Shown here one piece after another: positions 4,985 through 11,326 of a stretch of DNA of 22,197 nucleotides (within the stretch, counting starts at the first letter, position 1; the number at the start of each line of letters is the position of its first letter). Under the pieces are notes generated by a model. That model did no database searches and was not told the DNA's origin. It was given only the letters and a program-made list of their open reading frames with translations. Location of the stretch: contig JAGHCW010000235.1 in assembly GCA_021160245.1 (NCBI GenBank), positions 1 through 22,197 on the forward strand, written 5' to 3'. Position numbers and translations under genes: made by a program. The stretch comes from a bacterium (lineage in GTDB: Bacteria; B130-G9).

Positions 4985-5002
4985 CAAGATGTTTGCATCT
5001 TG
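4985..5002. repeat. Perfect palindromic hairpin upstream of the first beta-helix gene
   Basis: CAAGATG-TTTG-CATCTTG is a perfect 7-bp stem with a 4-nt loop, between the divergent PP-loop and beta-helix promoters. Its right half belongs to the decamer TGCATCTTGC (4994-5003) that also occurs at 83-92 and 11448-11457. No T-tract follows on either strand, so it does not look like an intrinsic terminator; an operator is more likely. Confidence 0.45.
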
Positions 5003-5046
5003 CCACATTAAAGGTAATCTACATTAGATTTATCTTGCGTTCTATG

Positions 5047-5075
5047 TTCCGAAATCCATGTTATGGGGGTATAAT
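5047..5075 (+). promoter_or_regulatory. Predicted promoter of the first beta-helix gene
   Basis: A perfect TATAAT (5070-5075) lies 17 bases after a weak -35, TTCCGA (5047-5052, 3/6). Transcription would start near 5082, giving a leader of about 16 nt that contains the Shine-Dalgarno AAGGAG (5084-5089). The position of the -10 inside the longer TTG-started frame supports translation starting at 5098 rather than 4993. Confidence 0.45.
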
Positions 5076-5097
5076 TGCAATCCGAAGGAGCGCAACG

Positions 5098-7068
5098 ATG
5101 CGACACTTCTACGTGATCCTAACCTGTTCTTTGCTGGCGTTGCTGGTTAATGCGAGTTTATTCGCGGCTGTCCATTCCGTCATCCAGGATGGCACTGGTG
5201 ATTTCGCGGACATTCAGGAGGCGATCGATGCAACGCAGGATGGCGATACCATAATTGTCTATACCGGGACTTATTACGAGAACATCCGCTTCAGCGGCAA
5301 GAATATCCTGCTCTGGTCGGTTGATCCCGAGGACCGAGAGTGCGTCGAGAGCACGATCATCGATGGCAATCAGAATGGCACGGTCGTGACGTTCGCCGGC
5401 ACCGAGGACGAGACGTGCGAGCTTTCGGGCTTCACGATTACGAATGGTCTAGCGGAATATGGGGGAGGGATATCGGGGGGGAAGTGGCCAGGGTACGGTC
5501 CCTATGCGTCGCCGACGATCACTAACTGCATAATCACGGCCAATCAAGTTACGACAATGGGTGCGGGCATCAGCTGCTGTGGAGGCAGGATATACAACTG
5601 TGATATCACAGAAAACCGAGGGCTGAGCGATGACCCAGAGCACCTGTCCTGGGGCGGCGGCATTTGCGTTGGATCCTGGACCGGAGCACCGTGCTCGCCC
5701 ATAATCGAGAACTGCCTGATCGCTAGTAATTCCGTCAGCTATGGGAGCGGGATATATCTGGATCTTGCTTTCTCTTCAAGGATCGTGGATTGCGTCGTAG
5801 CTGCAAACGAAGGAGGAGGAATCCTCGTCGGCAGCTCGGGAGTACTCATCTCCGGGTGCATGATCAGCGGCAATTACGAGCATGGCGGCATTGTGGTGGC
5901 GGGGTATTCATCGGGCCTCATCCGAGATTGCACAATCAGCGGGAACACGTCAGCATACGATGGAGGAGGGATTCTCTGCTCTCATTCTTCCCCGACTATC
6001 GAGAGTTGCCTGATAAGAGACAACAATGCCAGATACGGCGGCGGCATCTCCTGTACGTATGCCCCGGCGCTGATTAGAGATTGCACAATCACCGGGAATT
6101 TGGGGCAGTTTGGCGGTGGCGGGATGGAGTTTGGCAACGCCGAATCCCCACCGACGATCGAGAACTGCTGCATCACGGGAAATTCTACGCCAGGCTCGGG
6201 CGGTGGCGCCAGCTTCTGGGGCGGCCCTGCGTGTCTGCGTAACTGCCTCTTCGTTGGCAACACGGCCGTTCGAGGCGGCGCGGTTTACTGTTGGTCGGCC
6301 GCGCCGGAGTTTTACAATTGCACTATCGCAGGGAACGTGGCCGAGTCGGCCGGCGTAATGTACTGCGGCTCGAATGCCGGTCCGAAGATCAGCGACTCGA
6401 TTATATGGGAGAACGTCCCCGATAACTTCGGCTTCTACCCGAGCGGAGGAACAGTAGCAGTTTCGTACTCCTGCGTCGAGGGAGGTTATGAGGGGGAGGG
6501 CAACATCGCAGCTGATCCGTTGTTCGTAGCGATTGGCGATGACCCGGCGGAGGGATATCACCTCGCCACGGACAGTCCTTGCATAGACGCCGGAAGCGGC
6601 CCGGTGGGCGATCTGCATCATGGCCTTCTCAGCCACAAGACAACGCAGACCTGCCCGGTTCGAGACACCGGAGTCATAGACATGGGGTTTCACTACCCCG
6701 TTGATGATGTTACCATTTCCTGCTGGACCTCCTTACAATATCTTCGCGACAGCTACGACTGGGAGTTCATCGCACGGGTCTCCGCTGAGAACAGGTCGGC
6801 CGACGTTCGGGTCGAGGCGTATATCGGCATAATCTGCCCGGACGGGCTGATCTTGTCCATCACGGAGATTGGCCGTCCGGAGGTCGGGGTAATTCCGTTC
6901 TTCATTGGGACCTTTCCAGGGGGGCACCATATTGCGCCAATCGAGGTCCTCTGGTTCATACTTCCCAACGACCGTCCGCCCGGTCGCTACTTGCTCGTGG
7001 CGGTACTGGTGGAACCGGCAACGGGCGCACTCTACGCCTATTGCACTGCGGCAACACTATTAGGATAG
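5098..7068 (+). CDS. Exported right-handed parallel beta-helix repeat protein (paralog 1)
   Basis: A 656-residue exported protein. ATG 5098 is preceded by AAGGAG at 8 bases and opens a signal peptide (MRHFYVILTCSLLALLVNAS...FA). It continues into the pectin-lyase-like N-terminal cap found in this family: GDFADIQEAIDA, DGDTIIVYTGTYYENI, VESTIIDG and CELSGFTITNG. About twelve helical rungs follow, each with an I-x-N/D/S-C core (ITNC, IYNC, IENC, IVDC, IRDC, IESC and so on) and glycine-rich GGGI turns, so Cys and Asn would stack along the helix. After SYSCVEGGYEGEGNIAADPLF and SPCIDAGS, the last 115 or so residues form a separate beta-rich domain (CPDGLILSITE, PPGRYLLVAVLVEPATG) shared with the paralog at 9299-11326. 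Likely extracellular or surface-located. Substrate binding, adhesion or polysaccharide-lyase activity are all possible; no lyase catalytic motif was recognised. Confidence 0.88.
   Translation: MRHFYVILTCSLLALLVNASLFAAVHSVIQDGTGDFADIQEAIDATQDGDTIIVYTGTYYENIRFSGKNILLWSVDPEDRECVESTIIDGNQNGTVVTFAGTEDETCELSGFTITNGLAEYGGGISGGKWPGYGPYASPTITNCIITANQVTTMGAGISCCGGRIYNCDITENRGLSDDPEHLSWGGGICVGSWTGAPCSPIIENCLIASNSVSYGSGIYLDLAFSSRIVDCVVAANEGGGILVGSSGVLISGCMISGNYEHGGIVVAGYSSGLIRDCTISGNTSAYDGGGILCSHSSPTIESCLIRDNNARYGGGISCTYAPALIRDCTITGNLGQFGGGGMEFGNAESPPTIENCCITGNSTPGSGGGASFWGGPACLRNCLFVGNTAVRGGAVYCWSAAPEFYNCTIAGNVAESAGVMYCGSNAGPKISDSIIWENVPDNFGFYPSGGTVAVSYSCVEGGYEGEGNIAADPLFVAIGDDPAEGYHLATDSPCIDAGSGPVGDLHHGLLSHKTTQTCPVRDTGVIDMGFHYPVDDVTISCWTSLQYLRDSYDWEFIARVSAENRSADVRVEAYIGIICPDGLILSITEIGRPEVGVIPFFIGTFPGGHHIAPIEVLWFILPNDRPPGRYLLVAVLVEPATGALYAYCTAATLLG
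5179..5481 (+). repeat. Paralogous segment, copy 1
   Basis: This 303-bp stretch encodes the N-terminal cap and first rung of the beta-helix protein. It aligns without gaps, codon for codon, with 9497-9799. Differences are largely synonymous or conservative, so the duplication is old rather than recent. The longest near-identical block encodes TFAGTEDETCELSGFTITNG. Confidence 0.8.
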
Positions 7069-7185: not shown

Positions 7186-7500
7186 TCATGGCATCATGCC
7201 GCCTCCTTGTGGCGAGTCATAGAAAAGGTCTGTGTCCCAGCAAGATGTCTTGTCGGTGGCCCAGTCTGTGCCACCGTACGAGAGACTCCCGCAGCTCCCG
7301 TCTCTATTATCGATCCCATCAAGTACCCCCCACGCCCAGGCAAAGCCCTCCTTCCAAGTGAACGGTACTGATCCGATGGTATCTTGGACGCCTCCCGAAT
7401 ACAGCCAGGCCCCCTCCCAACCAGACCAAATGCAGTCCTGCTGCCCTGCCGCGTCATCGTATGTTTTTTCCATCCAGATGCTATCGCTCCCGCTCCAATA
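7186..7500 (-). pseudogene. In-frame continuation of the Rhs gene beyond a TGA codon
   Basis: Immediately after the TGA that ends the 534-residue Rhs frame (7503-7501), the same frame stays open for 104 codons to a second TGA (7188-7186). The encoded sequence looks like genuine protein: it starts YWSGSDSIWMEKTYDD, is rich in Trp, Gly, Asp and aromatics like the upstream region, and has three cysteines. Other frames over the same DNA read as low-quality Arg/Gly/Ser-rich sequence. The simplest reading is that the gene once, or in other strains still, encoded about 639 residues and now carries a nonsense codon. Readthrough, recoding or a sequencing error cannot be excluded. No convincing bacterial SECIS hairpin was seen just 3' of the TGA. 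Confidence 0.6.
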
Positions 7501-9105
7501 TCAATACCCCATGAGAGCACACGAGAATCTCTCGTCGCAGCATTTCGTGCAGCCCCCAGGCTCGGCGGGACTGGTGTAATGCTTATAGAATGCAGGCTCT
7601 TCCAGTGCCGCCTGGCAGGCTATATTCATCGTGGATGCGACCGCCGAAAGACACTCCAGAGCGCAAAGCCCAAGCGTATATGTCTTGGTGGGGGGGATTA
7701 GGGGATCAGGGTCCCATGATCCAGTAAATGCCATGCAGACCTCAGTGCCCACACCAAGGAGCGACTCGCCCCAGTCCCATGCGTAGTCAAAGAACCCGTT
7801 CTGCGTCCAGCCATATCTGCACGTAACCATGAGGTACACAGCCAACGGGATCTCCGGCTGCGGCGGGAAATACCGCTCTTTCCATTGTGTCTCATGCAAA
7901 GTGCCTGTACTATCCTTGTGCTTCATGTTGAAGTGAATATGTGGGCCTAGATTGTTGTCGTTCTTCAATCTAATAGTCGTCCCCATAGGCGTATATGTCG
8001 CGTCCACCGTTGGCGTTGGCATCAGAGACTTGACGGGGGCCGTGTGATGCCGGTAGGACACTTCATTCACCCCGAGCGTCGTCATTCCTGGACTTGCATT
8101 CAGCGTCTGGCGCCAGCTGGCCGCCACTAAGGGGGGCGCGAACGGGAGGTAGTCTTGATCCAGCTCATAGTGCGGTTCAATTTTTTCTCTCTCTTTCACA
8201 GGTTCGTGTTTGCACCAGGGCGTCTTCGTTGTGGCCACCGCCCGAGCCTCGGTCCCGACGTCGCTTACCCAGTCCACTCCATCTGCGTGATGACCGAGCC
8301 AGATCTCAGAAAAACCTATATCCCCTGCGTCCAGCATCACGGGGTACTTCTCCGGAAGAGGCGTAGCAAACGGGGGGCCAGTGCCCGGTGGGAGAGGCGT
8401 GGGCTTGTCAGGGCCACCAGGGGGCCCACCGAGCAGCTCTGTTACGCAGTGGCCGCAGTTCATGAACTGAGTGTACCAAGTATCAGACCCCGGGTCATAA
8501 CCGACCGGAAAATGCGCCTCGAGATCGGGGTCCCAAATCCAACTCCCCGCACCAAAGTCAATATCGCTCTCGTACGCGCCCTCAACCTCGGGAATCCCGC
8601 AGCCGATCTGCCCGATCGTCGCGGCCGTGCCCTGGTCTGCGCCCAGGATCATGCTGAGGCTGCCACCGCCGTCCTTCACGTAATAGAACGTCTCCTCGCC
8701 GTCGTAAAACTGCGTGTTGACGATCGGGTCGGTTGCGCCGAGGCCGTAGCCGAACGACTCACGAATATCCCACTCGGTATCGTAGGTCGCGATCGCCTTG
8801 CTGCCATCGTAAAGGTAGTAGATTGAGCCATCGGTATTTCTCTTGCAGTAGCGACTCCCATCGGGGTAATACGTCGATTGCCAGACCGTGCTGTCATCCA
8901 CCGTGCAGCTCAACAGCCGATTCTCATCGTTGAGCGAATACTCCGTAACCACACTCCCATCGTCGCTTTTGGTCAATTTGCCGTTCAGATCGTATTCATA
9001 CTCGAGAGGATCGAGCTCCTGAGGTCCGCAATCAGTCAGCTGATCCATTTCGTCATACTCGAACTCGGGTATGCAAGAAAATGCTTGTTTCCCGTTTCGG
9101 TTCAT
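7501..9105 (-). CDS. Rhs/YD-repeat protein fragment with M23-like peptidase region
   Basis: A 534-residue product. Residues 15-110 contain degenerate YD repeats (EYEYDLNGKLTKSDDG, YSLNDENRLLSC, YYPDGSRYCKRNTDGSIYYLYD). An Rhs-core-like closure follows (SFGYGLGATDPIV, FYYVKDGGGSLSMIL). A Pro/Gly linker (about 227-250) leads to a region with three LytM/M23-like signatures in order: HHADGVDW...GTEARAV (272-290), SYRHH (350-354) and GPHIHF (387-392). The His-to-Asp spacing in the first is one residue longer than the family HxxxD. Typical Rhs proteins are far longer, so the N-terminus is missing: there is no signal peptide, and the frame begins inside a YD repeat three codons after a stop. No Shine-Dalgarno sequence is present; the promoter at 9111-9139 would make the mRNA leaderless. 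It ends at an in-frame TGA with protein-like sequence beyond. It could be an orphan Rhs tip or a decaying gene. Confidence 0.72.
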   Translation of the reverse strand: MNRNGKQAFSCIPEFEYDEMDQLTDCGPQELDPLEYEYDLNGKLTKSDDGSVVTEYSLNDENRLLSCTVDDSTVWQSTYYPDGSRYCKRNTDGSIYYLYDGSKAIATYDTEWDIRESFGYGLGATDPIVNTQFYDGEETFYYVKDGGGSLSMILGADQGTAATIGQIGCGIPEVEGAYESDIDFGAGSWIWDPDLEAHFPVGYDPGSDTWYTQFMNCGHCVTELLGGPPGGPDKPTPLPPGTGPPFATPLPEKYPVMLDAGDIGFSEIWLGHHADGVDWVSDVGTEARAVATTKTPWCKHEPVKEREKIEPHYELDQDYLPFAPPLVAASWRQTLNASPGMTTLGVNEVSYRHHTAPVKSLMPTPTVDATYTPMGTTIRLKNDNNLGPHIHFNMKHKDSTGTLHETQWKERYFPPQPEIPLAVYLMVTCRYGWTQNGFFDYAWDWGESLLGVGTEVCMAFTGSWDPDPLIPPTKTYTLGLCALECLSAVASTMNIACQAALEEPAFYKHYTSPAEPGGCTKCCDERFSCALMGY

Positions 9106-9298: not shown

Positions 9299-11326
9299 AT
9301 GAGCCCTAAATCGTGTTCTGTGCAGATTCTGTGTTCGATACAGCACGGGGCTGTGCAGACTATGCGTCCGCCCTTAATGAGCGCAGTCGCCCATCAAAAG
9401 CCCAGAGCCGCCGTCAAACGCGGTCTTTTCTTTTTGTTGATGTTGTTTTTTCTTATGGGATTCTCCCCTAGCGTCGTTTCTGCGGTCGAATATACCGTAA
9501 TCCAGGACGGTTCTGGTGATTTTGTGGACATTCAGCACGCGATCGATGCGGCGCTGGATGGCGATACTATAATCGTCCATACCGGGACTTATTACGAGAA
9601 CATCCACTTCCTCGGCAAGAATATCCTGCTGACCTCGACCGACATCTGGGACCGCGACGTCGTTGAGAGCACGATCATTGATGGCCAGGCAAGCGCCTGC
9701 GTAGTGACGTTTGCAGGCACCGAAGACGAGACCTGCGAGCTATCGGGTTTCACAATCACGAATGGCCAGGCTGAGCGCGGTGGTGGCGTAACTGGCGGAG
9801 TTTACGAAGACGTCGATTCATACGGCCCGTGGACGAAGGGTGCGATCAATAACTGCATAATCACAGGGAATCTGGCGCTGGCTAAGGGTGGCGGGATTTT
9901 CAGCTTGGGGGGCACGATCAGTAACTGCGTGATTGAATACAACATGGCTCATAGGGATGATCCGGATCGGCAATCATTCGGGGCCGGCATCTATTGTTTT
10001 GATTGCTCGCCGTCAATCGAGAGGTGCTTGATCAGGGGTAATTCGGCAGATGGCGGCGGCGGGGGAATTGATTTGGAATATTCCGATGCAAGAATAACCG
10101 ATTCAGCTATCACGGAGAACGAGGGAGACGGGATTAATTTTTCGTATTCGCCGCCATTCATCTCCAACTGCACGATCAGCGGGAATTCGGATGATGGCAT
10201 TTGCGCAACCTCTGACGGCACGATTGAGAAATGCACTATCACTGGGAACGGCGATTGTGGAATCTACTGTAGCAATTCATCAACGACGATAGCAAACTGC
10301 ACGATTAGCAGGAACGCATCGGGTGGCGTATGGTGCAGTTCTGCTTCGTCGCTGATCACGAACTGTCTGATCAAGGACAGTAGGAGTCCAGGTATTCTTA
10401 GCTTTGGCGATGATCCGGGGCCACTTATCGAGAATTGCCAGATAACAGGGAATCGTAATACCATGTACGAGGGTGGTGGGCTTTACCTGATGTCCGGGAA
10501 CGTATCTAATTGCCTAATCACCCGTAACTCCGCTAGCCAGGGAGGCGGAGGGGTATATTGTCGTAATTTCTACGGGACGCTATCCAACTGCACAATCTAT
10601 GGCAACGCAGGGCATTCTGGACAAGCTATCTATTGTGATTGGGGGAGCTCGCCGGTGGTGGTTAACTGCATACTGCGGTGGAACTCCTCGAACATCGATT
10701 TCGATCCCAATAGCTCGATCAGTATCACTTACTCTTGCGTTCAGGGCGGGTTTGAGGGTGAGGGCAACATCAGCTCCAACCCATTGCTCATGACCGGGCA
10801 ATACGGGGACTACTACCTTTCACATATTGATGCGGGGCAGGCCGCGGATAGCCCGTGCATCGATGCTGGCAGCGACAGCGCGCTTGCGCTTGGCCTTGAG
10901 GGACACACGACGAGAACGGACGGTGTGCCGGATATGGGAATGGTTGATATGGGCTATCACTATTCCGCTTACCTAGCGATATCTTGCTCGGTCAACGATG
11001 AGCAATTCGGAGCGGGGGATGCAATCGTAGGCTCCCTTGCGGTCACGAATAACGGGCTCGGGGTGCTTGTCGATGTCTATCTCGGCTTCGTGCTGCCAGA
11101 CGGGTCGATCTTCACATTTGGAGATACAGGGCTTGTGGACGGCCTGCGGCCTTGGCTGACTGGGACTCCCGTTCCGCCCGATTTCAGTTTCGGTCCGGAA
11201 GTCATTTTCGAGCTCCAGGTGCCTGACGGCATGATGGTCGGCAACTATCTCTTTGCTGCGATGCTAACCTCGCCCGACGCCTTTAGCCCGATGTCATTCT
11301 CGGCCACAGAGTTTGAGATCAAGTAG
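9299..11326 (+). CDS. Exported right-handed parallel beta-helix repeat protein (paralog 2)
   Basis: Up to 675 residues. The export signal is RGLFFLLMLFFLMGFSPSVV..SA, with a long basic N-region if ATG 9299 is used. GGAG lies 13 bases before 9299; the internal ATGs at 9362 and 9377 lack a Shine-Dalgarno sequence but would give a more ordinary signal peptide, so the start is uncertain. The mature part begins VEYTVIQDGSGDF and has the same cap as paralog 1. About twelve rungs follow, with ISNC, IERC, IEKC, IANC, ITNC, IENC, VSNC and LSNC cores, then SYSCVQGGFEGEGNI and SPCIDAGSDS. The C-terminal beta-rich domain (about 550-675) carries VDVYLGFVLPDGSIF and VPDGMMVGNYLFAAML. No anchor or sorting signal is obvious after the final EFEIK. 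Probably secreted or surface-exposed; enzymatic function unknown. Confidence 0.87.
   Translation: MSPKSCSVQILCSIQHGAVQTMRPPLMSAVAHQKPRAAVKRGLFFLLMLFFLMGFSPSVVSAVEYTVIQDGSGDFVDIQHAIDAALDGDTIIVHTGTYYENIHFLGKNILLTSTDIWDRDVVESTIIDGQASACVVTFAGTEDETCELSGFTITNGQAERGGGVTGGVYEDVDSYGPWTKGAINNCIITGNLALAKGGGIFSLGGTISNCVIEYNMAHRDDPDRQSFGAGIYCFDCSPSIERCLIRGNSADGGGGGIDLEYSDARITDSAITENEGDGINFSYSPPFISNCTISGNSDDGICATSDGTIEKCTITGNGDCGIYCSNSSTTIANCTISRNASGGVWCSSASSLITNCLIKDSRSPGILSFGDDPGPLIENCQITGNRNTMYEGGGLYLMSGNVSNCLITRNSASQGGGGVYCRNFYGTLSNCTIYGNAGHSGQAIYCDWGSSPVVVNCILRWNSSNIDFDPNSSISITYSCVQGGFEGEGNISSNPLLMTGQYGDYYLSHIDAGQAADSPCIDAGSDSALALGLEGHTTRTDGVPDMGMVDMGYHYSAYLAISCSVNDEQFGAGDAIVGSLAVTNNGLGVLVDVYLGFVLPDGSIFTFGDTGLVDGLRPWLTGTPVPPDFSFGPEVIFELQVPDGMMVGNYLFAAMLTSPDAFSPMSFSATEFEIK
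9497..9799 (+). repeat. Paralogous segment, copy 2
   Basis: Gap-free 303-bp counterpart of 5179-5481, encoding the N-terminal cap of the second beta-helix protein. Shared blocks include the codons for TGTYYENI, GKNILL, VESTIIDG and TFAGTEDETCELSGFTITNG, with many third-position differences. Confidence 0.8.

What the first reader, a model, noticed from the sequence alone, without database searches (positions are those of the whole stretch)
7186..9105. Rhs-type gene interrupted by one in-frame TGA with 104 protein-like codons beyond
The 534-codon frame stops at TGA 7503-7501, but the same frame continues without any stop to 7186. The extra 104 residues have the Trp/Gly/Asp-rich composition of the upstream part. 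Elsewhere in the window TGA ends alaS, recX, pilT and nadB normally, so a genome-wide reassignment is unlikely. The options are a fresh nonsense mutation, an assembly error, programmed readthrough or selenocysteine. The gene is otherwise intact around this point, with no frameshift nearby.
Basis: partly seen in the sequence, partly recalled or inferred. Interest (0 to 1): 0.6.

Follow-up and report, generated by a model that had tools for sequence, protein, structure and literature searches.

The report
Broken leftover Rhs gene fragment
A partial Rhs gene (a bacterial repeat protein often used in competition between bacteria) carries a stop codon in mid-frame; the bacterium can make selenocysteine, but nothing here marks this stop for it, so the gene is most likely an ordinary decaying leftover.

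Summary
In detail: the minus-strand frame 9105-7501 ends in TGA (7503-7501) and stays open for 104 more codons, to TGA 7188-7186. The extension has the codon and residue make-up of a real gene, although synonymous codon choice alone is not decisive. The only homologue found of the last domain (relative G001, 46% identical) runs on for about 100 residues past the equivalent point. So the frame probably once continued here, although the extension itself does not resemble that homologue's tail.

This genome does use selenocysteine: selA, selB, tRNA-Sec and selD are present, and selD has an in-frame TGA with a strong hairpin. The Rhs TGA lacks those marks: its hairpin is weak (36% of random TGAs do as well), the homologue has no Cys there, and no redox motif is present.

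The gene is also truncated at its 5' end, has no evident ribosome-binding site and lacks the Rhs-associated core motif that its paralogues keep. It looks like a displaced, decaying Rhs tip with the TGA as a nonsense mutation. An assembly error cannot be excluded without reads. Low interest.

The parts
7501..9105 (-). Rhs-derived frame of 534 codons, 5'-truncated
8587..9075 (-). end of the Rhs core (YD-repeat-like), residues about 11-173
   Evidence: RHS_core E 8e-6; homologous to Rhs genes of G000, G001 and G002
7906..8358 (-). stretch with M23-peptidase-like motifs (HHADGVDW, GPHIHF); a lead only
7504..7827 (-). Cys-rich C-terminal module (residues 427-534), shared with G001:C138
   Evidence: 46% identical; 2 of 386 genomes
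7501..7503 (-). in-frame TGA
7186..7500 (-). 104-codon open continuation with its own stop

Best explanation
The region is a 5'-truncated, probably silent Rhs fragment of the displaced-tip kind: the end of the Rhs core with a once-attached C-terminal tip. It has picked up a nonsense mutation (TGA 7503-7501) about 104 codons before its former end. The TGA works as an ordinary stop, and any product would be a shortened tip. Shown here: the truncated 5' end, the missing Rhs-associated core motif, the coding-like extension, and a homologue that continues. Inferred: that the copy is silent and that the TGA is a mutation.
For: The extension is coding-like in this frame only. The homologue in G001 keeps the CCDERFS motif and continues about 104 residues past the equivalent of the TGA; searched against the genome it aligned across the TGA. 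The gene starts inside the Rhs core, with no Shine-Dalgarno-like site at its ATG and no Rhs-like sequence upstream by eye in three frames. Paralogues have TIGR03696, this copy does not. Rhs loci are known to leave dissociated tips in silent positions (PMC2935791).
Against: Only one homologue exists in the genomes searched, and its tail does not resemble the extension beyond shuffles. Synonymous codon choice alone is not decisive. Apart from the TGA the 534 codons and the 104 codons hold no further stop, so decay would be recent. There is no intact Rhs gene beside the fragment, as in the published displaced tips.
Confidence: 0.62

Rival explanations
1. The TGA is the true end of the tip in this lineage, and the open stretch beyond is a relic or a chance frame.
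For: Tails do not align beyond shuffles; runs of 82-100 open codons follow other genes of the window; synonymous test not decisive.
Against: The homologue continues; the extension scores above all 55 spurious frames.
Confidence: 0.17
2. Assembly or sequencing error in the metagenome-derived contig.
For: The genome is a draft of 244 contigs; a single wrong base would suffice.
Against: No frameshift or other defect nearby in the frame. No reads are available here.
Confidence: 0.12
3. The TGA is read as selenocysteine.
For: Full Sec machinery, and a selD gene with an in-frame TGA and a strong hairpin. A small hairpin with a G at the start of its loop does follow the Rhs TGA.
Against: That hairpin is weak (-5.9 kcal/mol; 36% of 3,886 TGAs match it); no Cys in the homologue; no UxxC or CxxU motif; the gene looks defective.
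Confidence: 0.04
4. Programmed or leaky readthrough by a near-cognate tRNA adds the 104-residue tail to a minority of product.
For: Low-level UGA leakiness is general in bacteria (own knowledge); the frame downstream is open and coding-like.
Against: No second example with a TGA at this place, so no conserved signal can be shown. Of the tRNA genes read, only tRNA-Sec has an anticodon for TGA.
Confidence: 0.05

Closest known systems
Displaced ('dissociated') Rhs C-terminal tips (Jackson et al. 2009, PMC2935791)
   Same: A fragment of Rhs core joined to a variable tip, without the N-terminal part of the gene; Rhs loci of the family visibly reshuffled.
   Different: No intact Rhs gene next to it; the Rhs-associated core motif is lost; a nonsense codon inside the tip.
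Bacterial selenoprotein genes (SelD of this genome as control)
   Same: An in-frame TGA in a genome with the full Sec machinery.
   Different: Weak hairpin, no Cys in the homologue, no redox motif, defective gene.

Membership tests
Rhs / YD-repeat protein | YD repeats / RHS core homology | tested here: met
   RHS_core 8.2e-6 over residues 14-80 (far below its full-length cut-off), YD repeat 0.058; homology to Rhs genes of the family
Rhs / YD-repeat protein | Rhs-associated core domain TIGR03696 before the tip | tested here: not met
   absent here, present in paralogues
Displaced Rhs tip | core fragment plus tip without the N-terminal part | tested here: met
Displaced Rhs tip | lies downstream of an intact Rhs gene with an identical core | tested here: not met
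   no other Rhs gene in the window; the other Rhs hits of the genome lie on contigs C30 and C47
Bacterial selenoprotein | selA, selB, selC, selD in the genome | tested here: met
Bacterial selenoprotein | SECIS hairpin directly after the TGA | tested here: not met
   -5.9 kcal/mol, no better than 36% of random TGAs; control selD -19.8
Bacterial selenoprotein | Cys or Sec at this position in homologues | tested here: not met
   one homologue, no Cys at or next to the position
Peptidase M23 | profile match with HxxxD and HxH metal ligands | tested here: inconclusive
   motifs seen; Pfam none; pairwise score reached by 19 of 2000 shuffles; hhalign none

The most novel reading that the evidence does not exclude
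An Rhs tip whose last part is added by selenocysteine insertion or regulated readthrough at an in-frame TGA, in a genome that does decode some TGA codons as selenocysteine.
Probability: 0.05. Interest if true: 0.7.

Novelty: new member of a known kind. Interest (0 to 1): 0.15.

Why it matters
If recoded, it would be the first recoded Rhs effector that I know of. As it stands it is a useful warning: a genome with the full selenocysteine machinery also has ordinary nonsense codons in decaying genes, and a control from the same genome (selD) helps to tell the two apart.

Tried and rejected
Homologues of the 104-residue extension: none significant (Pfam, NCBIfam, 40 relatives). Homologues of the whole frame or its C-terminal module in GTDB contigs, viral contigs and plasmids: none. 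Profile search over 386 genomes: only G000 and G001. Extension against the homologue's tail: not better than shuffles. Synteny around pilT: the contigs of G001 and G003 end too close to it, and G002 has unrelated genes upstream. Structure predictions of two pieces gave pLDDT 33 and 36, so no fold search was made. Rfam and tRNA scans of the window: empty. PADLOC: none. Genome-wide reassignment of TGA rejected: TGA ends five other genes of the window.

Full report
Observation. On the minus strand a 534-codon frame (9105-7501) ends in TGA, and the same frame runs on without a stop for 104 codons to TGA 7188-7186. The chance of 104 stop-free codons at this composition is about 0.7% per gene by mononucleotide shuffling, so length alone is weak: other genes of this window are followed by 100 and 82 open codons. 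Composition says more. With a codon model trained on the window's other genes, the extension scores like the median real window and above all 55 spurious frames, and both shifted frames and all three reverse frames score lower. Most of that signal is residue composition: synonymous choice alone places the extension between the two groups.

What the gene is. Only residues about 11-173 are Rhs-like. Rhs paralogues in this genome and in a relative keep the TIGR03696 Rhs-associated core domain after the repeats, and the window copy does not. The frame begins in the YD repeats, with nothing Rhs-like upstream by eye in three frames, no Shine-Dalgarno-like site at its ATG, and the divergent beta-helix gene starting about 190 bases away. 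A middle stretch has motifs like those of M23 peptidases, but the tests are inconclusive. The last 108 residues are a Cys-rich module with one homologue, in G001:C138 (46%). There the module sits, out of frame, behind an Rhs N-terminal piece (DUF6531) and is followed by an 858-residue gene and then more YD repeats. So Rhs loci of this family are visibly reshuffled.

What the homologue says about the TGA. It shares the CCDERFS motif just before the TGA and then goes on for about 104 residues past the equivalent point. The genome search with it aligned across the TGA as far as position 7462. Beyond that, the two tails do not resemble each other more than shuffles do. The frame therefore probably went on here, but this rests on one homologue.

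Selenocysteine. All are present: tRNA-Sec (75 bits, anticodon TCA), selA, selB, and selD with an in-frame TGA. selD serves as positive control: its TGA is followed by a hairpin of -19.8 kcal/mol with a G in the second position of the apical loop. The Rhs TGA is followed by a hairpin of -5.9 kcal/mol (z -1.3), and 36% of 3,886 TGA triplets from this genome have an equally good one. In the same comparison 13% match the selD hairpin and 7.5% the selD folding energy, so the test can argue against recoding here but could not prove it. The homologue has no Cys at the site, and no UxxC or CxxU motif is present. A published survey demanded Cys homologues, and treated single in-frame TGAs as possible sequencing errors (PMC1088965). 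A selenocysteine here is therefore unlikely, although the organism could make one.

Best reading. Rhs loci are known to shed their C-terminal tips, together with a fragment of core, into silent positions (PMC2935791). The window copy resembles such a displaced tip, with decay begun: truncated start, lost core motif, nonsense codon. It differs in having no intact Rhs gene next to it. An assembly error at the TGA, or a genuine end with a relic behind it, remains possible. The rarity of the module (2 of 386 genomes) prevents a better comparison.

Noticed in passing
L063 (G000:C106:19782-19874), L070, L071, L078: The genome has a complete bacterial selenocysteine system, with a selD gene that itself has an in-frame TGA followed by a strong hairpin.
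   Followed up: partly
L091 1-4897 (G001:C138): An Rhs N-terminal piece (DUF6531) is followed out of frame by the Cys-rich module, then an 858-residue gene, then more YD repeats: an interrupted or reshuffled Rhs locus.
   Followed up: partly
L092 1-4605 (G000:C30): Tandem Rhs pieces: an Rhs end with a tip, a protein of 361 residues that looks like a CPBP-type membrane protease by eye, and a second Rhs piece with a different tip.
   Followed up: no
4993-7068 and 9299-11326: Two paralogous right-handed beta-helix proteins flank the Rhs fragment; a 194-nt stretch near their starts is 81% identical.
   Followed up: no
7906-8358: M23-peptidase-like motifs (HHADGVDW and GPHIHF) within the Rhs tip, not detected by Pfam.
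   Followed up: partly
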